Source: Caballeronia concitans
GTDB taxonomy: Bacteria; Pseudomonadota; Gammaproteobacteria; Burkholderiales; Burkholderiaceae
NCBI RefSeq assembly: GCF_001544615.1
Contig: NZ_FCNV02000004.1
Location: 361,722-425,721 of the forward strand
Length of the DNA stretch: 64,000 nt
Reading direction: 5' to 3'
Shown one piece after another: positions 31,928 to 58,257 of the stretch. The position numbers and the translations under genes were made by a program. Positions within the stretch are counted from its first letter, which is position 1, and every line of letters begins with the position of its first letter. The notes under the pieces were generated by a model. That model searched no databases and was not told the DNA's origin. It saw only the letters and a program-made list of their open reading frames with translations.

Positions 31928-32022
31928 TTGACTTGGTGGACTAAGGGTTTATACTAGCTCTTGTCTCCTCCATGTCTCAACCGATGTGGATTCAAGCCCG
32001 CTCACTGAGCGGGCTTTTTTTT
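31928..32022 (+). ncRNA. candidate short sRNA with its promoter and terminator
   Basis: A promoter TTGACT (31928-31933), 16-base spacer and TATACT (31950-31955) predicts a start near 31962. About 34 bases later a perfect 10-bp stem (31995-32004 with 32006-32015; effective loop a few bases) is followed by eight T. The RNA would be about 60 nt. Its unpaired 5' part has TGTCTCCTCC, complementary to a strong Shine-Dalgarno sequence. There is no open frame. It follows the cytochrome gene but has its own promoter. Short anti-Shine-Dalgarno sRNAs are known from Burkholderia; whether this belongs to one of those families I cannot tell. Confidence 0.72.
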
Positions 32023-49919: not shown

Positions 49920-51923
49920 TCAGCGATCGAGGAACGGACGCAGCTTGTCGGCGCGGCTCGGATGCATCAGCTTGCGCATCGCCTTGCTCTCGATCTGACG
50001 GATACGCTCGCGCGTCACGTCGAACTGCTTGCCCAGCTCTTCGAGCGTGTAGTCCGACGCCGTATCGATACCGAAGCGCATACGCAGCACCTTCGCTTCG
50101 CGCGGCGAGAGCGCGTTGAGCGCATCGTCGATTGCGGCGCGCATGTTGGCGTGCACGGCGGCATCGGCGGGCGATGCAGCGCCCTGGTCTTCGATCATGT
50201 CGCCGAGCGTCGCGTCGGCATCCTCACCGACCGGCGTTTCCAGCGACACCGGCTGCTTCGCGATCTTGAGAATGCCGCGAATCTTCTCTTCGGGCATTTC
50301 CATGCGCTCGGCCAGCACCGACGGATGCGCTTCCTGACCCGTCTGCTGCAGGATCTCGCGCGAAATGCGGTTCAGCTTGTTGATCGTTTCGATCATGTGA
50401 ACCGGCACGCGGATCGTGCGAGCCTGGTCGGCCAGCGAACGCGTCACCGCCTGACGAACCCACCACGTCGCGTACGTCGAGAACTTCCAGCCACGACGAT
50501 ATTCGAACTTGTCCACCGCCTTCATCAGGCCGATGTTGCCTTCCTGAATCAGGTCGAGGAACTGCATGCCGCGATTGACGTACTTCTTCGCGATCGAGAT
50601 GACGAGACGGAGATTCGCCTCGATCATTTCGCGCTTCGCCTGACGCATCTTCAGCTCGGCGGCCGTCATCTGACGGTTGATCTGCTTCAGTTGCTGCAGC
50701 GGCAGCGCGACGACGCCTTCGATGTCGATCAACTTTTGCTGTTCAGCCTGAATAGCCGGCAAGCTGCGCTCCAGCGACGCGCCGTACTGCTTCGAACCCG
50801 CTGCTGCACGCGACGTCCATTCGAGATCGGTCTCGTGACCGACGAACGACTCGACGAACTTCTCGCGCGGCATACCGCAGCGGTCGACCGCGATCTGCAG
50901 AACACGACGCTCGATTTCGCGCACTCGCGCAACTTGCTGCTGAACGTCGGCGCACAGGCGGTCGATGGTCTTCGCCGTGAAGCGGATCGAACCGAGTTCG
51001 CGCTGGATCTCGGCGCGAGCACGTTCGACGGCCTTCGCTGCCGTGGCGCCCGATCCCTTAGGATTGCTTGCCTGTTCGGCGAGGTCGCGCACGCGGGCGA
51101 AAATCTCGAGGCAATCGGCCTTCAACTGCTTCAAACGCGCTTCGTTCGATGCGCCGGAATCGCCGCCTTCGAGGTCGCTGTCGTCATCGTCGTCGCCGTC
51201 GGAGTCGTCGCTGTCCGTATCGATATCAGCGGACTCCGTTACTTCGGGAGCCGAAATATCTTCCTCTACCGCGTCGTCTTCTTTCAGGCCGTCGACGAGT
51301 TCGTCGATCTTCAGCTCGCCGGATTCGACGAGTGCCGCGTCCGCCAGAATGGTGCCGACCGTCGACGGGCACGCGGCGATCGCCTGGATCATCTCGTGCA
51401 GGCCGTCTTCGATGCGCTTCGCGATTGCGATTTCACCGGCGCGCGTGAGCAACTCGGTCGCGCCCATTTCGCGCATGTACATGCGCACAGGATCCGTGGT
51501 GCGTCCGAATTCCGAGTCCACGGTCGAGAGCGCGTTTTCGGCTTCTTCTTCCGATTGCTCGTCGGCCACGACCGCAGGCGCGTTGTCGCTCAGCAGCAGC
51601 GTTTCAGCGTCGGGCGCTTGCTCGTACACGGCCACGCCCATGTCGTTAAACGTGCTGACGATGGTTTCCATCGCCGCGGTCTGTGCGAAGTTGTCCGGCA
51701 GGTGGTCGTTGATTTCGGCGTGCGTGAGATAGCCACGCTCCTTGCCGAGTTGAATCAACGCACGCATCTGACGCTGACGCTCTTCGTCCTGCTCCGCCGT
51801 CATCACGACATCGGGCTGCATCGTGCCGGCCTGGCCTTTGCTCTTGCCCGCCTTGCGTCCTGCAGACCGACGCACCGGCGCGACGATATCCAGCTCCGAA
51901 TCTTCCCGATCAAAACTTGCCAT
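49920..51923 (-). CDS. rpoD: RNA polymerase sigma factor RpoD (sigma-70)
   Basis: A 667-residue primary-type sigma factor. Region 1.1 lies at the start ([20 protein letters not shown]). A long acidic non-conserved part has [17 protein letters not shown] near residue 250. Region 2 follows ([20 protein letters not shown], then [15 protein letters not shown]), and region 4.2 ends it ([19 protein letters not shown]). All regions are intact, so it should act as a full primary sigma. AGGAGA lies 6 bases before ATG 51923. The gene has no dnaG partner here, unlike the usual rpoD locus, and sits beside a rep-par region. It may be a second rpoD. Confidence 0.96.
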
Positions 51924-52110
51924 ACTTTCTCCTCGACAGGTTTGCTCGGCGATGACAGGTCCCCGGAAGCGAGCGTGACGGCCCGCGTGACATCGATAAC
52001 AGCTTCGACAACGGACGGCTTGCTGAGAATCGCATCGAGCAAAGCGCACAATCCACGCGTAGTACGTGCATTGCGTAAATTCCAAAGCGCCATCAAAGAC
52101 GCAACCTTAG

Positions 52111-52228: not shown

Positions 52229-53485
52229 TCATGCCGCGTTTGGTGACGGTCCTGCTTCCCCATTCATCCCCCATGTTGTGCCCTCTCCGGCCTGTTTCAA
52301 CCGCAATAAGCGTTTGAGCGCGTCGAGATTGCGCAAGGCGTGTCTAGCTGGCGCTGTTTCATTCGAGGGGCGGGGTTCGAGCGCAGGCATGGGCCGATGA
52401 TCGTGCGATTCCGTTGCGGCTGCGTCCACCGGAACAATGCGACCGGCATCGAGCGCCGCGATGAAATCGCTGGCCCAAGCCCCTGCGTGTACGCGCGGGT
52501 GAGCTTCGTCACGATGATTGACGGTGATCGACTTGGCGTCGTCGGCGACGACGTAGTGGCGAAGTCCGTCATGGCTAACGAAGGCGCGCCCGGCGAGCGT
52601 TCGAGTTTCACGCTGGACATGCGCTTGGTGCGCAGAGACAGTTTCGCGTTCGACGATGTCTTGTTGCTTTGTGCGAACTCGATGAGCGAAGTCGACCGGC
52701 GCTCTAAGCAATGTGCGCAGGTAGCTGATCGGGTGCTTCGCCAGGCGTAGATGTTCCCATGTGGCTTCGACTACGTCGGAGAGTCGCTTTCCTTGGGACC
52801 TCGCCTCGCGCATGAGTTTGAAGACGAGGAACTCACGAAATCCCAGCGTGCAAAGGCGGTCCAGATCTGGCGGGAGGCGTCCTGGTTGTCTCTTTTGAGT
52901 AGAAGGGCTTAGATCCTTATATATAGCGCCGTCTGCCACCGTGACAGACGGTAGAGCCAAAGGAGTCGCCGCAGCGGAGCGCACGTCACCGTCCTGCGAG
53001 CGGGTGATCGCTTCATCCGACTGCATCGACGGTTCGACCAAGCCGAGAAGCGCCGCTGCCTTGCGCGTGAGATGGATGTATGCGCGACCGAAGAGTCCTG
53101 CGCCGCCGTAACGGCTCTGAGGCGGTCGAGTGATGAAACCCTCGGATTCCAGATCGTCGAGGCTGCGATAGAACGTGCGCATCGACTGGAGGGCGCGGCC
53201 GGTCAGCAATTCGCGGCGGGCAAAAATGGCGGCAAAGGGTCGTCCGGCGTCGACCGTTCGCGCTAGTGCGGCTAGAACGGCGCGCGCTCGAGCGGGAAGG
53301 GCAGAGACGTGGTTCGCGCGATGCGCTGCCCGGAAGATGATCCACGGCAGGTTGGATCGATCGCAAGCGTATTCGTCGAGCGCCTGCTGATCCTCATTAT
53401 CGACGGTTGATTTGAAGTCTTGCGGGCGAGTTTTAACCTCGCCTGCAACGGAAAGTTGCGCGATATGCATGTCAAGTGCGTCCAT
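52229..53485 (-). CDS. replication initiator protein (rep) of a secondary replicon
   Basis: A 418-residue basic DNA-binding protein. The first half looks like a winged-helix domain (ARAVLAALARTVDAGRPFAA, then MRTFYRSLDDLESEGFITRPP), followed by IHLTRKAAALLGL. The second half has LGFREFLVFKLMREARSQGK and ends in basic and Pro-rich sequence. It is convergent in none of its neighbours: parA, parB and rep all run on the minus strand. Position and fold suggest it is the initiator of this replicon. It is not RepC-like by eye. ATG 53485 lies inside a small RNA hairpin with no ribosome site. Confidence 0.75.
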   Translation of the reverse strand: MDALDMHIAQLSVAGEVKTRPQDFKSTVDNEDQQALDEYACDRSNLPWIIFRAAHRANHVSALPARARAVLAALARTVDAGRPFAAIFARRELLTGRALQSMRTFYRSLDDLESEGFITRPPQSRYGGAGLFGRAYIHLTRKAAALLGLVEPSMQSDEAITRSQDGDVRSAAATPLALPSVTVADGAIYKDLSPSTQKRQPGRLPPDLDRLCTLGFREFLVFKLMREARSQGKRLSDVVEATWEHLRLAKHPISYLRTLLRAPVDFAHRVRTKQQDIVERETVSAHQAHVQRETRTLAGRAFVSHDGLRHYVVADDAKSITVNHRDEAHPRVHAGAWASDFIAALDAGRIVPVDAAATESHDHRPMPALEPRPSNETAPARHALRNLDALKRLLRLKQAGEGTTWGMNGEAGPSPNAA

Positions 53486-53498
53486 TTCGAAAAATGGA
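53481..53498 (-). promoter_or_regulatory. hairpin that hides the rep start codon
   Basis: On the rep mRNA, UCCAUUU-UUCG-AAAUGGA is a perfect 7-bp stem with a UUCG loop. The AUG of rep is within the 3' arm. There is no Shine-Dalgarno upstream. The structure should hold rep translation low unless opened. Confidence 0.65.
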
Positions 53499-53508
53499 GG
53501 ACAAACGC

Positions 53509-53640
53509 TTGACTGCTAATCGCTATCCGCTAAACTTCGAGTTGTGGAGCTCGTGACCCGATTGGCGTCGGGAAGCGGACGGGCGATAAGCAGTAAAGCC
53601 CGAATTCAAAAGCCTTCGGTTGGCGCCGAAGGCTTTTGTC
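53509..53640 (+). ncRNA. candidate counter-transcribed RNA in the parB-rep gap
   Basis: On the plus strand TTGACT (53509-53514), 16 bases and TAAACT (53531-53536) predict a start near 53542. The transcript would have a stem CCCGA-TTGGCG-TCGGG (53557-53572) and a terminator stem AAAAGCCTTCGG / CCGAAGGCTTTT (53608-53637) with the same loop TTGGCG, then TGTCTTTT. Length is about 98 nt. It is antisense to the rep leader if rep is read from the par promoter or any promoter beyond 53640. The 301-base gap holds no gene and is AT-richer than the flanks. Confidence 0.65.
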
Positions 53641-53729
53641 TTTTCAGAGTCAGTAGTTACATGGCTGCCTCGTTGTTTCTTCGTTGCTTACTCATTGATT
53701 TTTGAGGAGTTTCTACTAGAGCCATCGCG

Positions 53730-53786: not shown

Positions 53787-54755
53787 TCAGTCTGACGCAC
53801 TCTCGTCGATCGATTTGTTAATGAAATCTGCGATGCGCTGCGCCCAGGCCTCCGCCTCGCCTGCATCATTTTCGTAGAAACGGATGCCGACAACCCCGCT
53901 TCGGGCCGAAACCTCACACACCTTTCTCCTGCCCGCTCGGACGACCGTTGTTCTGGGCGCGGCCGCCTTGGGCTTTTCCGCCGCGAGGGCAACTGCTTTG
54001 TCTTGAGTAAAACTTTCGTCGCTAATCAAGCGATGGATCGCCTCGACGACTTTCTCTGACTTTCCAGCTTCCGTCAGCGCCGCGAGCTTCTGTGCGGCGT
54101 TGCTTCCAAGGCGCTCCGGCTTTTGCGCGAGCGCTTCCTTTGCAGCGTCGGGTAGAGCGTCGAACGAAAAGATGCGACTGACGTGGCTCTTGCTGAGGCC
54201 GGCGCTTTCGGAAATCTCGGCTCGCGATAGGCCGCTCAGCTCCTGCAGACGTTTGAAGTTCCAGTACTTCTCGAAGTCGGTAAGAGACGGCGAAAGTAGG
54301 TTCGAAAAGAACGCCGCGAACTCGATCTCGCCTTCTTCGATAGCGGCCACGTTCGCGCGAATCGTGGTCCGCCCGAGTTCGCGATAAGCTGCAACGCGGT
54401 TGTGCCCGGCGACGATCTCATAGCGGCCGTCCGACACAGGGCGCACCAGGATCGGTGTCGCGAGCGCGTGCTGCGCCAGATTGGCCTTCAACTCCTGAAA
54501 TTGCTCGGCGGTCAGCTTGCGCCGCCTACCGTCTACCTCGACGAGCGCGTCGAGCGGCACTTCGAATGCCGCTCGCTGCTCGAGTTGCGCCTCCAGTTCC
54601 TTGATTCGCGTTTGCGCCGTGTTGATCCGATGTTGCGCATCCATCAACCTTCCGGGCGACGTGCGCGGCTCCGAATTAACGACGCGCTGAGTCGGCTCAG
54701 TCGGCTTATTGCCAATGTTCGCGGTCTTCGCGAGAAGTCTGTCCCCGATGCCCAT
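53787..54755 (-). CDS. parB: chromosome/plasmid partition protein ParB
   Basis: A 322-residue ParB/RepB family protein. The N-terminal nuclease-like CTP-binding region has VRPVSDGRYEIVAGHNRVAAY (GHNRVAAY is the box-II motif) near residue 107. The helix-turn-helix LSRAEISESAGLSKSHVSRI is near residue 178. A coiled region NTAQTRIKELEAQLEQRAAF lies at residues 46-65. It directly follows parA: the stop TAA abuts the ATG. It binds parS centromeres, none of which I could locate by eye. Confidence 0.93.
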   Translation of the reverse strand: MGIGDRLLAKTANIGNKPTEPTQRVVNSEPRTSPGRLMDAQHRINTAQTRIKELEAQLEQRAAFEVPLDALVEVDGRRRKLTAEQFQELKANLAQHALATPILVRPVSDGRYEIVAGHNRVAAYRELGRTTIRANVAAIEEGEIEFAAFFSNLLSPSLTDFEKYWNFKRLQELSGLSRAEISESAGLSKSHVSRIFSFDALPDAAKEALAQKPERLGSNAAQKLAALTEAGKSEKVVEAIHRLISDESFTQDKAVALAAEKPKAAAPRTTVVRAGRRKVCEVSARSGVVGIRFYENDAGEAEAWAQRIADFINKSIDESASD

Positions 54756-55934
54756 TTATGCCTCCGCCTGATTCCACGCGCGAACGAACTGCGCGTCGAG
54801 ATGTTCTGCGAGCCGGTCGAGCGGCTCCTTGAATCGGTTGTAGGCCGCCGTGCTGCCGTCGGGCTTCGACAGGTCATACACAGTCGACAGCTGCGCCGAC
54901 GCGCCCTTGGGCACCGTCGATTCCGGAATTTCGAAGGGCAGTACGCGATCGCCGTATGCTTTTTGTAACCATCCCCTCACGACGCGCGAGACGTCATCGG
55001 ACTTGGCTTTGGTCAGAATCACGTTGACGAAATCGAAGCGCTTTTGCTCGAGCACCCCGGGCAGCTTCTTGGCGATGTCCGCAAAGAGATGCCAGAACTG
55101 CGTCGAACTCGCGAAGTCCAGCGCTTCAGGCGGGCAGGGAAGCAAGATCGCATCGGACGCGAGGAGCGCGTTGATGGTCAGATAGCTGAGCGCGGGCGGG
55201 GTATCGATAACCACCGCGTCGTACTCCTCGGTCAGCGGCATCAACCCTTTACGCACGATTTCCCAAAACTCGAACGTGCTGTCGTTCAACACTTTGGCCG
55301 GAATCTCGAATTCGGCGTCGAACAGCGACGACGACGCCGGAATCAGATCGAGGTTATGCCAATACGTCTCTTGCACAGCGTATTGCAGCGTTGTCTGGTC
55401 GCCATAGATCAGCGGCAGGAGGGTCTGATCGTCTGATATTTCGGCGTCGGGCGCCCATCCGCAGAGTTGGGTCGTGGTGCCTTGCGGGTCGCAATCGATC
55501 ACGAGGACGCGCCGGCCCAGCAACGTCAGCGCTTGGGCCGCCGATACCGCCGTCGTCGTCTTGGCAACGCCCCCCTTGAAGTTCGCGACGGTCACGATCC
55601 GTCCGCGTTTGCCCTCGGGCCGCCGGACGCGCTCCTTCGTGGCACGAACCCAAGTCAGCGCTTCTTCGAGCGTGAATTCCTTGCTTCGGCCCGCGCCCTT
55701 CGACGTTCCCGCAGGCAGTTCGCCCTTGGTGGTCAGGTACTGAAAGCGCTGCTTGTCGATCCCACACAGCGAGGCGACCTGCGCGCTCGTGAACGTCGGC
55801 GCGCTCTTGCGTGGATAGGGCTCCAGCATCGCGTCGCGGATCTGATTGAGAATGTCAGTGGCTTGGGCGGCCACCCCCAAGAGCGTTTCGATCGAAACGG
55901 ATTGATCGACTTCGGGAAGCCGAGCGCTTAACAT
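54756..55934 (-). CDS. parA: partition ATPase ParA with N-terminal DNA-binding domain
   Basis: A protein of about 392 residues. The N-terminal MerR/HTH-like domain TSAQVASLCGIDKQRFQYLT near residue 45 is followed by the deviant Walker A NFKGGVAKTTTAV near residue 122 and by IDCDPQGTTTQLCGW and VVIDTPPALSYL. This is the type Ia/RepA form of ParA, which also represses its own operon. ATG 55934 was chosen; GTG 55949 is also possible and neither has a clear ribosome site. A long inverted repeat lies directly upstream, the likely autoregulatory site. Confidence 0.93.
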   Translation of the reverse strand: MLSARLPEVDQSVSIETLLGVAAQATDILNQIRDAMLEPYPRKSAPTFTSAQVASLCGIDKQRFQYLTTKGELPAGTSKGAGRSKEFTLEEALTWVRATKERVRRPEGKRGRIVTVANFKGGVAKTTTAVSAAQALTLLGRRVLVIDCDPQGTTTQLCGWAPDAEISDDQTLLPLIYGDQTTLQYAVQETYWHNLDLIPASSSLFDAEFEIPAKVLNDSTFEFWEIVRKGLMPLTEEYDAVVIDTPPALSYLTINALLASDAILLPCPPEALDFASSTQFWHLFADIAKKLPGVLEQKRFDFVNVILTKAKSDDVSRVVRGWLQKAYGDRVLPFEIPESTVPKGASAQLSTVYDLSKPDGSTAAYNRFKEPLDRLAEHLDAQFVRAWNQAEA

Positions 55935-55972
55935 GGAGTTCGCAGTCACTGGCGGGCCTGGGTAAGCAAAAA

Positions 55973-56012
55973 ATTCTTCGGTTTGTGGAAAACATACTGC
56001 AAACCGAAGAAT
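55973..56012. promoter_or_regulatory. 13-bp perfect inverted repeat in the parA promoter
   Basis: ATTCTTCGGTTTG (55973-55985) and its exact complement CAAACCGAAGAAT (56000-56012) flank 14 bases. The inner part contains TGTGGAAAA (55984-55992), a match to the relaxed DnaA box TTWTNCACA on the minus strand. It lies about 40 bases upstream of parA, where a type Ia ParA would bind to repress. Confidence 0.7.
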
Positions 56013-56106
56013 AAACGGCCAACCGGTAAACCTCAAGTAAACTCTGAACTCTTTGTTGCGCGGCTGCAGGCGGTTTTACCTCGCGGCGTTCTCGTAAACA
56101 TTCACA

Positions 56107-58083
56107 TTAGGCGCAATCCCAGTCGACTTCAGCCGCAAGCGTGCTTCGCAGGAATCGCTCGACGCCGAGTAAACGGCTGGAATCTTCGCGTTCGAGGTAG
56201 AGCGCCGTAGTCGAATCGTCGGCGTGGCCGAGTCCTTTGCCTAGCTCGGATAAGTCCGCGCCGTGAGCAAGCGCATGAACCGAGTGCGTGTGCCGAAGCC
56301 AGTGTGTGCTGGCGCGCGCGAGACGTCGTCCGGCGCCGGGCGTCTGGGCTTCAGCCGCCGCGGCAGCATTCGCGAACACATTTTTGAACAGTCTACCGAT
56401 CCCGTCGGGCGTGATGGCGCTTGTTCCGCGTGCCTGAGCGAGAATCGGCGTGCCCTCGGGACACTCGAGCGCACCCGGCAGACCCCGCAGCGCAAGATTG
56501 TCGTGCAGCAGTTCGACGACGACAGGCGGCAGTAGCACGGTCCGGACTGCACGCCGCCCGCTGGCCGATGCGACGCTTAGCCGCCATACCGGCGCGTCCA
56601 CGCCGGACAATCGCCCGACGGAAAGCGCGTCCGTCGTAGCGGCGGCAAGTTCCGCCCGGCGCAGACCGGTGGCGTAGGCGAGGAGGAGCGCCAACCGGTC
56701 GCGATGCTCCGCAAATGTATAGTGCGGCCGCGTGACGGAAAGCAGCACCGTCCGCCACTGCTCGGCATCGAGCGTGCGATCTTGCGCGTCGAAGGTCGGC
56801 GGTGTCGCCACGCGCTCGTGGCCCGCGAAGGGATTCGTCGCCAGGTAACCGCTTTCGACGAGCCACTCGCACATCGCATTGAGAATCGCCCGAGCCGCTT
56901 CCCGGCTGCGATCGGAGAGCGGCCCGGCGAACGGCTTCCAGCCGGGAAGACACCGTTCGATTCGACCCCGCGCAATCCAGCGCTCCGCCGGTTGCGGGTT
57001 GGGCAGAAATTCGGCCAGATACGACGCGCAATCGTCCGAACTGAGCGATGAGAGCGGCTTCTCCTTTTCGACCAACGCCCAGAGCAGCAGTCTTTCCGCC
57101 TCCCGCCGATACGCTCGCCGAGTGTGATCGCTCGCCGAACGTGCGTCGAGCCAGGCGGTGAGGGCGCGCAAGTCGGTGCCGAAATTCGCGGCGACGGATT
57201 TCGTCGCACGATTCGTCCCCCGCGATCCATCGAACGCGGCGGGCACCCGCAACGCTTCAAAGGGGGCGATCTGGACCGGAACTGCATCCGTCGATGAGAC
57301 CGGCAGCGTATCCGGCCGCCATTGCCGCCGCGGCACGAGCGCAAACGGCGAAAGCGTGTGCCGGAGCGGTTCTGCATGCAGCGTCAGCCAGTCGACGATC
57401 CGCTGCGCACCCTTCGGCCCGAGCCGTGGCACGGATGTGTACCAGCGATGGCGCCGTCGCTCGATCAACGCAATGAGATCCGCGATCGTCGTGAGCCCTG
57501 CCGCCGACAGACGCGCGGTCACGACCGGCTCGAACCATCCGTCGATCGGATGATCGGGCTTCGGATCCTGAACGAGGCTCGCCTCCATGCGGGCGAGCGC
57601 GTTCGCCTGCCGCCGACGCAGCCGCGCATTGCGCGCCGAGCGCCGGTCCGATGCCGCCGACGCGCCGTGCCGAAACTCCTCTTCATAGAGCGCGAGCAGT
57701 TCGGATTCGCCGTACACGCCGTCCGGATCGATGCGCTCGCGGAACGCCTCGAGCGTCGGTGCGTCCGAAGAGGCCGCGCCATCAGCAGGCGATGGAATGC
57801 TGCCCGGGCGCAGCCGAAGCAGATGTGCGGCTTCGACGTCCTGTGCGCGGCGGGCGAGAACCGAAAGCGTGTCCCGCAGGGCGGCGATCAGTCGTCGCGT
57901 CTTGCGGACGTCGGATCCGGCCTCGCCGTACGAAGCGTGGAGCTGCGCTTCCGAAACGCCGTCGAGGTAACCGCGATAGAGCGCGAAATGCTGACGCGTG
58001 AGCCGTCGCGGCGCACCGGTTTGCGCTGCATGGTCAGAAGGGCGGGTTGCCACCACGCGTTTTTTGTCTTTGATATCAGTCAT
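56107..58083 (-). CDS. tyrosine recombinase/integrase with long N-terminal domain
   Basis: A 658-residue protein. The C-terminal catalytic domain has the Arg in ATGLRRAEL near residue 475, HWLRHTHSVHALAHG near residue 593, GLGHADDSTTALYLERED with the Tyr near residue 629. So R-H-R-H-Y is complete. The first 300 residues form a separate domain seen in Burkholderiales phage-integrase-like proteins (YRGYLDGVSEAQLHASYGE). It is encoded 173 bases upstream of parA on the same strand. It may resolve dimers of this replicon; that role is inferred from position. ATG 58083 was chosen as the last start before the promoter-like region. Confidence 0.85.
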   Translation of the reverse strand: MTDIKDKKRVVATRPSDHAAQTGAPRRLTRQHFALYRGYLDGVSEAQLHASYGEAGSDVRKTRRLIAALRDTLSVLARRAQDVEAAHLLRLRPGSIPSPADGAASSDAPTLEAFRERIDPDGVYGESELLALYEEEFRHGASAASDRRSARNARLRRRQANALARMEASLVQDPKPDHPIDGWFEPVVTARLSAAGLTTIADLIALIERRRHRWYTSVPRLGPKGAQRIVDWLTLHAEPLRHTLSPFALVPRRQWRPDTLPVSSTDAVPVQIAPFEALRVPAAFDGSRGTNRATKSVAANFGTDLRALTAWLDARSASDHTRRAYRREAERLLLWALVEKEKPLSSLSSDDCASYLAEFLPNPQPAERWIARGRIERCLPGWKPFAGPLSDRSREAARAILNAMCEWLVESGYLATNPFAGHERVATPPTFDAQDRTLDAEQWRTVLLSVTRPHYTFAEHRDRLALLLAYATGLRRAELAAATTDALSVGRLSGVDAPVWRLSVASASGRRAVRTVLLPPVVVELLHDNLALRGLPGALECPEGTPILAQARGTSAITPDGIGRLFKNVFANAAAAAEAQTPGAGRRLARASTHWLRHTHSVHALAHGADLSELGKGLGHADDSTTALYLEREDSSRLLGVERFLRSTLAAEVDWDCA

Positions 58084-58135
58084 TTGGCGCGAGGTTATCA
58101 AGTGCCGTCGAATTTGACAAGGTAAATCGATACAT

Positions 58136-58155
58136 CTGATAAGAGCAATTATCAG
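58136..58155. promoter_or_regulatory. inverted repeat between the recombinase and Nramp genes
   Basis: CTGATAA-GAGCAA-TTATCAG is a perfect 7-bp inverted repeat with a 6-base spacer, 53 bases upstream of the recombinase ATG and in the divergent promoter region. It is a good operator candidate for either gene. Confidence 0.5.
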
Positions 58156-58257
58156 CAATGCGCGTTCGGCGGACGCGCATTGCGCTCGCTTGAATGTTCG
58201 AAGCCTGCGGAGCATATTCGAGCCACCACAGGCGCACTCTTCAGGAGACACGTGCCG

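What the first reader, a model, noticed from the sequence alone, without database searches (positions are those of the whole stretch)
53481..53640. Predicted antisense RNA and start-codon hairpin controlling the initiator in a parA-parB-rep cluster
Seen: the plus strand between parB and rep has a promoter-like TTGACT-N16-TAAACT, then two stem-loops sharing the loop hexamer TTGGCG, the second one a terminator. On the other strand the rep AUG sits in a 7-bp UUCG hairpin without a Shine-Dalgarno. Known: in repABC plasmids of alphaproteobacteria a counter-transcribed RNA in the repB-repC gap represses the initiator. Inference: the same control logic exists here with a rep protein that does not look like RepC.
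Basis: partly seen in the sequence, partly recalled or inferred. Interest (0 to 1): 0.78.

Follow-up and report, generated by a model that had tools for sequence, protein, structure and literature searches.

The report
Antisense RNA controlling a chromid's replication gene
A short RNA made from the strand opposite the replication-initiator gene of a large secondary replicon in soil bacteria probably limits how often that replicon copies itself, and its hairpin tips change between related replicons in the way an identity tag would.

Summary
The parB-rep gap of this Caballeronia secondary replicon carries a plus-strand promoter, two hairpins with the same loop, and a terminator. Across 34 sequences (this one included) the ~99-nt RNA is 95% identical, rep coding DNA 63.5%. 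The terminator stem covaries. A model of the RNA finds it in 55 of 58 genomes of the genus and on named Burkholderia and Cupriavidus plasmids. The two loops equal each other in 79 of 109 loci (24 expected) while differing between replicon groups, as incompatibility determinants would. I read it as a counter-transcribed RNA repressing rep translation.

Revised: the hairpin AUG is in frame with rep in 41 of 98 start regions, nearly always in the window's own group. The shared start is the next AUG (53470); the hairpin masks a GGA before it. New: a minimal ORF (AUG, 0-4 codons, stop) about 25 nt before the first hairpin in 99 of 110 sequences, 13.6 in shuffles. It is not repABC: no RepC, and no clear refolding switch in the fold model. 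Expression is untested.

The parts
53509..53536 (+). promoter of the antisense RNA, TTGACT-N16-TAAACT
   Evidence: hexamers 98.6% identical in 34 sequences; spacer 16 nt in 109 of 109 loci picked by a pattern that allowed 15-17
53543..53641 (+). predicted counter-transcribed RNA, about 98-100 nt; both ends inferred
   Evidence: 95.0% mean identity in 34 sequences; covariance model R1, 105 bits in the window
53557..53572 (+). hairpin H2, loop UUGGCG at 53562-53567 (target loop CGCCAA)
   Evidence: only 7 distinct arm pairs, all paired
53580..53602 (+). middle stem CGGGC/GCCCG; in the CTGGAA replicon group this stretch carries a further copy of the loop hexamer
53607..53638 (+). terminator hairpin H1, loop UUGGCG at 53620-53625, followed by a U-rich tail
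   Evidence: covariation
53657..53662 (-). minimal leader ORF AUG-UAA; SD-like GAGG at 53671-53668; AUG 24 nt before H1
   Evidence: AUG + 0-4 codons + stop in 99 of 110 sequences, 13.6 in shuffles
53481..53498 (-). hairpin TCCATTT-TTCG-AAATGGA masking a GGA (53483-53481) upstream of the shared rep start; contains the AUG at 53485, whose frame is not conserved in the family
53460..53523 (-). long imperfect stem (GCGAT..GCAGTCAAG with CTTGACATGC..ATCGC) enclosing the hairpin and the start AUG 53470-53468
53445..53459 (-). hairpin GCAAC/GTTGC in the first rep codons
52229..53470 (-). rep, replication initiator ('replication protein O' in public annotation); shared start at the second AUG (53485 possible here)
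53787..54755 (-). parB
54756..56036 (-). parA (ORF as listed from a TTG; the true start may lie downstream)

Best explanation
The plus strand between parB and rep encodes a counter-transcribed RNA of about 98 nt that binds the rep mRNA leader through its hairpin loops and represses translation of the initiator, setting copy number and incompatibility of this replicon. Shown by comparison: a conserved promoter, a conserved RNA ending in a terminator whose stem covaries, and loops that match each other and differ between replicon groups. Inferred: that the RNA is made, that it kisses the leader loops, and that it acts on translation. Inferred with less confidence: the rep SD is masked by default, a ribosome loading at the minimal ORF 25 nt before H1 is needed to open the leader, and the antisense duplex, whose end would lie about 17-21 nt from that AUG, blocks it.
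For: Conservation of the promoter-to-terminator block (95.0% against 57.3% upstream and 63.5% for rep). Spacer 16 nt in 109 of 109 loci found with a pattern allowing 15-17. Covariation: 9 of 16 pairs with changes on both sides (7 in H1, 2 in an outer helix; H2 is not in that structure), 78 cells, 0 of 500 shuffles. H1 stems carry 13 positions that are G-U only in the plus-strand RNA against 2 only in the minus-strand RNA, in 29 distinct stems. U-rich tail on the plus strand only. Loops equal in 79 of 109 loci, 24.1 by shuffling; 6 of 27 distinct types, 1.9 by shuffling. Co-resident replicons share a loop pair in 4 of 63 pairs, 10.1 by shuffling, p 0.016. RNA present at E<=1e-8 in 55 of 58 genomes of the genus and on C. 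grimmiae p1, C. insecticola p1, pBVIE03, pBIN_2, pMOL28 and, more weakly, Aromatoleum plasmid 2. Mini-ORF in 99 of 110.
Against: No transcript, TSS or reporter data. Blocking the antisense-covered segment in the fold model leaves SD accessibility unchanged in 91 of 105 leaders (lower 3, higher 11) and the AUG in 82 of 106 (lower 23, higher 1), so no clear switch is predicted. H2 shows no strand bias (2 against 3) and too few distinct arms for a covariation test (7). Thirty of 109 loci have unequal loops, and three co-resident pairs share CTGGAA loops in both hairpins. The within-genome test does not separate selection from lineage. The outer helix has 11 cells that pair as G-U only in plus-strand sense although part of it lies in the -10 region, which I cannot explain.
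Confidence: 0.8

Rival explanations
1. The conserved block is a cis-acting leader of the rep mRNA alone; the plus-strand promoter and terminator are incidental.
For: The leader folds strongly and SD and start lie in stems; an outer helix that includes the -10 region covaries although the -10 is not part of the antisense RNA.
Against: Promoter hexamers 98.6% identical while the spacer varies more (87.4%) at a constant 16 nt; U-rich tail and the G-U bias of H1 belong to the plus strand, and the outer helix's wobble pairs do too; loop divergence between replicon groups.
Confidence: 0.1
2. The block is a DNA element: Rep-binding repeats or part of the replication origin, or merely a bidirectional terminator.
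For: Secondary replicons of B. cenocepacia have RepA-type genes with 19-21 bp iterons (PMC4948915, six passages seen). The hairpin is nearly symmetric. CGCCAA recurs in a similar context. Upstream of the RNA, two palindrome-plus-IHF-like units could bind Rep or ParB.
Against: Within the gap the repeat finder reports one two-copy 12-mer and two inverted pairs, no iteron array. Stem bases next to the equal loops differ but mostly keep pairing, which a DNA-binding site would not require. No T-tract on the rep strand.
Confidence: 0.06
3. The RNA acts by transcription attenuation of rep as described for repABC plasmids.
For: Same place in the same gene order; ParA's best NCBIfam match is partition_RepA, below its cut-off; ParB matches partition_RepB below its cut-off, behind two other ParB models.
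Against: No terminator-like site on the minus strand in the gap; in the fold model the SD is not exposed without the RNA.
Confidence: 0.12
4. It is a trans-acting small RNA related to Burkholderia ncS011 (RF02867).
For: Best Rfam match of the stretch, window 53527-53641 plus strand, E 0.00028, 24.1 bits.
Against: Half the gathering score of 48. ncS11 lies on chromosome 1 between BCAL2293 and BCAL2294 in B. cenocepacia (PMC4603805, passages). 18 related loci gave no Rfam match at E<=0.01. The alignment is best over the terminator.
Confidence: 0.02

Closest known systems
repABC ctRNA (RepE/incA/inc-alpha)
   Same: Small antisense RNA in the gap between the ParB-type gene and the initiator of large low-copy replicons; stem-loop acting as terminator; incompatibility role (PMC6090056, section 13 read).
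   Different: About 98 nt with two or three hairpins against about 50 nt with one predicted stem-loop; initiator is not RepC; fold model gives no SD-exposing alternative and no attenuator was found; a minimal ORF lies before the target; here in betaproteobacteria.
I-complex / IncL/M / IncFII antisense control (Inc RNA/RNAI, CopA)
   Same: Antisense stem-loop; for IncK, nucleotides of the top and interior loops decide incompatibility (PMC10724649, abstract and passages). UUGGCG is the loop motif named in a title on ColIb-P9 seen in that paper's reference list (there in the target RNA). Leader-peptide translation controls RepA of R1 (title seen there; details recalled).
   Different: Leader ORF here has 0-4 codons and lies before the hairpins; two or three equal loops; ParAB linkage; no pseudoknot partner found by eye.
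Iteron-type RepA replicons of B. cenocepacia (c2, c3, p1)
   Same: Secondary replicons of a related genus with adjacent parAB.
   Different: Iteron clusters; the words antisense and RNA do not occur in the text (PMC4948915). Here the initiator gap carries an antisense RNA; whether the rep families are related was not tested.

Membership tests
repABC replicon | RepC-type initiator (RP-C) | tested here: not met
   Only two insignificant Pfam matches for Rep at E<=10; PF03428 not found in the genome (no control genome passed the cut-off either)
repABC replicon | RepA and RepB partition proteins upstream in the same orientation | tested here: inconclusive
   TIGR03453 220 bits (cut-off 348), TIGR03454 57 bits (cut-off 201.5), both below cut-off
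repABC replicon | ctRNA gene on the opposite strand between the ParB-type gene and the initiator | tested here: met
   (sequence evidence only)
repABC ctRNA mechanism | leader refolds to expose the SD without the RNA and to form a terminator with it | tested here: not met
   fold model and terminator scan; a model only, and in 23 of 106 leaders the AUG does become less accessible with the segment blocked
plasmid replication-control antisense RNA (general kind) | cis-encoded, complementary to the initiator leader, own promoter and terminator | tested here: met
   (sequence evidence only)
plasmid replication-control antisense RNA (general kind) | expressed and represses the initiator in trans | not testable with these tools
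   needs RNA and reporter data
IncFII/IncI-type leader-peptide control | leader ORF whose translation is needed for rep translation | tested here: inconclusive
   minimal ORF in 99 of 110; need for its translation untested
Rfam ncS011 | score above gathering threshold | tested here: not met
   24.1 against 48 bits

The most novel reading that the evidence does not exclude
A new class of antisense replication control in which a start-stop or few-codon ORF with no conserved peptide serves only to dock a ribosome about 25 nt before the target hairpins; the antisense RNA closes this docking site, and two or three hairpins bearing the same loop sequence form one redundant identity code that must change together when a new compatible replicon arises.
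Probability: 0.35. Interest if true: 0.85.

Novelty: new variant of a known kind. Interest (0 to 1): 0.72.

Why it matters
In the one paper on it seen here (B. cenocepacia, PMC4948915, passages) replication control of secondary replicons in this family of bacteria is described as iteron-like. An antisense system in 55 of 58 genomes searched in Caballeronia's genus would give a simple, testable rule for copy number and for which replicons can live together, readable from the loop hexamers. The minimal ORF, if functional, would be an unusually small translated regulator. The system is compact enough for reporter and incompatibility tests on minireplicons.

Tried and rejected
Rejected: the hairpin AUG as the start shared by the family. 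ncS011 as a homologue. A simple refolding switch is not supported. A pseudoknot between loops and start region was looked for by eye only, without a consistent partner. Order-level matches of the RNA model outside the genus score 29-39 bits and are probably mostly terminators; of these only the one in G059 was seen to lie beside a distant rep; one more (L138) was read without a rep being recognised, the rest were not inspected. That search scored only 9 candidates per genome with strict filters, so it can miss members. L132-L134 and L173, with distant Rep proteins, show a terminator hairpin (decayed in L134) and promoter-like sequence by eye only; the model does not find L132-L134 at E<=1 and finds L173 weakly (21.8 bits) on the rep strand; L172 (Delftia) scores 16.9 bits.

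Selection and hand work. The 34-sequence set includes the window itself. The RNA model used 59 of 100 distinct RNA sequences, chosen by me. Of 120 loci, 11 without two readable loops were dropped before the loop count: L112, L132-L134, L130, L115 and five without a clear second loop. L130 and L115 were missed by my pattern but are found by the model (117.3 and 59.9 bits); L115, a decayed copy, has a 14-nt promoter spacer by eye. Seven-base loops ending in A were trimmed to six. Loops were reassigned by hand for some loci (lists in the scripts). Arms of H1, H2, the SD hairpin and the coding hairpin were picked by best pairing, which favours paired cells; the H1 test on alignment A1 is free of that. 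In one search, where several mini-ORFs were possible, the one with an SD and nearest 25 nt was taken, which favours a tight distance. Counts treat related sequences as separate. SD-like sequence was found for 70 of the 99 mini-ORFs. Confidence was lowered from 0.82 to 0.80 on checking, because the covarying pairs do not include H2.

Not done: structure prediction of Rep; the queue was full at each of eight tries. Literature: ten searches; no listed paper was recognised as describing this RNA, but most subscription journals are not held, and older work on the pMOL28 replicon (recalled) could not be checked.

Full report
What the locus is. The window lies on a 425,721-base contig of a 6.17-Mb genome. 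The nearest named relative by Rep is Caballeronia grimmiae (70% identity), where the same order (integrase, parA, parB, rep, rpoD) sits on a 916-kb plasmid. Close relatives (58-66% identity) in the plasmid collection carry it on replicons of 0.59-1.68 Mb, and one lies on a 2.36-Mb contig, so this looks like a third-replicon or chromid type. Rep is found in 57 of 58 genomes of the genus and in 76 of 299 drawn from the family, own genus included. Rep has no significant match in Pfam, NCBIfam or PDB sequences; public annotation often calls it 'replication protein O'.

The observation. Promoter, two hairpins with loop UUGGCG, terminator and the AUG hairpin are all as described. By itself the promoter is no better than chance, and the RNA without its terminator folds only slightly better than shuffles (z -1.7). 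What convinces is conservation in 34 orthologous gaps, the window's own included: mean identity 95.0% for the RNA, 98.6% for the hexamers, 87.4% for the promoter spacer, 57.3% for the upstream gap, 63.5% for rep (32 sequences).

A wider set. I added 80 more rep loci from the places listed. After removal of 15 named duplicates 120 loci remained. The promoter spacer is 16 nt in 109 of 109 loci in which a pattern allowing 15-17 and the rep start were both found. A covariance model from 59 of 100 distinct sequences has 16 pairs, 12 in H1 and 4 in an outer helix around H2; 9 show changes on both sides, 78 cells, and no shuffle of 500 reached this. H2 itself is not in that structure; its arms are paired in all 7 distinct forms. 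With the model, 55 of 58 genomes of the genus match at E<=1e-8. Named plasmids also match: C. insecticola p1 113.2 bits, pBVIE03 of B. vietnamiensis 106.7, C. grimmiae p1 105.7, pBIN_2 of B. glumae 93.4, pMOL28 of C. metallidurans 62.0, plasmid 2 of Aromatoleum aromaticum 39.6; plasmids of Delftia lacustris and C. necator do not match convincingly. In a sample of 399 genomes of the order, matches over 100 bits were in two genomes, both of this genus, with a filter that can miss members.

Which strand. The U-rich tail follows the hairpin only on the plus strand. In 29 distinct H1 stems, 13 positions are G-U only in the plus-strand RNA and 2 only in the minus-strand RNA; H2 shows no such bias (2 and 3).

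The loops. Read on the target strand, the two loops are CGCCAA/CGCCAA in the window's group, CGGGAA/CGGGAA in a second Caballeronia group, CTGGAA/CTGGAA in many accessory replicons (at least three copies of the hexamer in each of 17 distinct sequences), CTGGTA/CTGGTA, CGGCTA/CGGCTA and CGGCAA/CGGCAA in others. They are equal in 79 of 109 loci; shuffling gives 24.1. Counting each loop-pair type once, 6 of 27 are equal against 1.9 (p 0.007), and mean mismatches are 2.04 against 2.69 (p 0.00035). Exceptions exist, for instance TTGGCG with CGGCAA in Paraburkholderia and some Caballeronia replicons, and CGCCAA with CTGGAA in one accessory group. Co-resident replicons share a loop pair in 4 of 63 pairs, against 10.1 by shuffling (p 0.016); three of the four are CTGGAA replicons and the fourth may be an assembly duplicate. 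This fits incompatibility specificity; for IncK plasmids, loop positions decide compatibility (PMC10724649, abstract and passages).

The start of rep. The hairpin TCCATTT-loop-AAATGGA is kept with varied loops, but its AUG is in frame in 41, out of frame in 54 and missing in 3 of 98 distinct start regions. In the window's own group it is in frame in nearly all (32 of 34), so both starts are open there. The next AUG, 53470, begins the protein sequence shared by the family, and public annotation of C. grimmiae p1, pMOL28, pBVIE03 and pBIN_2 uses it. The hairpin therefore more likely masks the GGA 10 nt before that AUG; a longer stem also covers the AUG. In the fold model SD accessibility is low with or without the antisense-covered segment (median 0.021 and 0.029), unchanged in 91 of 105 leaders; AUG accessibility is unchanged in 82 of 106, lower in 23 with the segment blocked and higher in 1. 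This gives at most weak support for a refolding switch.

A minimal ORF. About 25 nt before H1 on the rep strand lies an AUG followed by 0-4 codons and a stop: 99 of 110 distinct sequences, 13.6 on average and 23 at most in 200 shuffles; with an SD-like tetramer 70, shuffles 1.6 and at most 6. The same test 40-160 nt further upstream gives 6-16 of 110, with SD 0-1. The AUG-to-H1 distance is 25.0 (sd 2.1), stop-to-H1 sd 2.8, and the codons are not conserved; 43 are bare start-stop (ties were resolved towards 25 nt). In the window it is GAGG-N5-ATG-TAA, 53671-53657. By eye pBVIE03, pBIN_2 and pMOL28 have one too, Aromatoleum does not show one. The antisense RNA would end about 17-21 nt from this AUG, near the edge of an initiating ribosome (footprint recalled), so blocking of ribosome loading is a natural, untested mechanism.

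Verdict. A counter-transcribed RNA controlling rep is the best reading (0.80). It would work like other plasmid antisense controls, but it is not a member of repABC, and its details (equal loops, minimal ORF) make it a new variant. Transcription, repression and the role of the minimal ORF all remain to be shown.

Noticed in passing
53787-53688: Between parB and the RNA lie two units of a short palindrome (CTACTAG / CTAGTAG, sequence differs between replicon groups by eye) followed by an IHF-like site (consensus WATCAANNNNTTR recalled; exact at 53763-53751, one mismatch by eye at 53700-53688). 93 such sites in 110 regions, 67 regions with at least one, against 0.42 in shuffles. Candidate parS plus IHF partition site.
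   Followed up: partly
49920-52085: An rpoD (sigma-70) gene directly follows rep, in the same order on the C. grimmiae plasmid; a housekeeping-type sigma factor on a secondary replicon.
   Followed up: no
56107-58251: Recombinase with DUF3701 and phage-integrase domains next to parA; a site-specific integrase lies at the same place in C. grimmiae.
   Followed up: no
55973-56012: Perfect 13-nt inverted repeat before parA (ATTCTTCGGTTTG / CAAACCGAAGAAT), possibly a parA operator or partition site.
   Followed up: no
31962-32022: Rfam RF02278 Betaproteobacteria toxic small RNA, 63.6 bits.
   Followed up: no
L115, L112, L111, L114: Rep copies with stops or split matches in smaller genomes of the genus; L115 also lost one arm of the terminator hairpin.
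   Followed up: partly
53445-53459: Hairpin GCAAC/GTTGC in the first rep codons, with a different paired sequence in L104-L106 type loci.
   Followed up: partly
A1 columns 5-8 with 50-53: Outer helix around H2 covaries but its wobble pairs (11 cells) are G-U only in plus-strand sense, although part of it is the -10 region.
   Followed up: no
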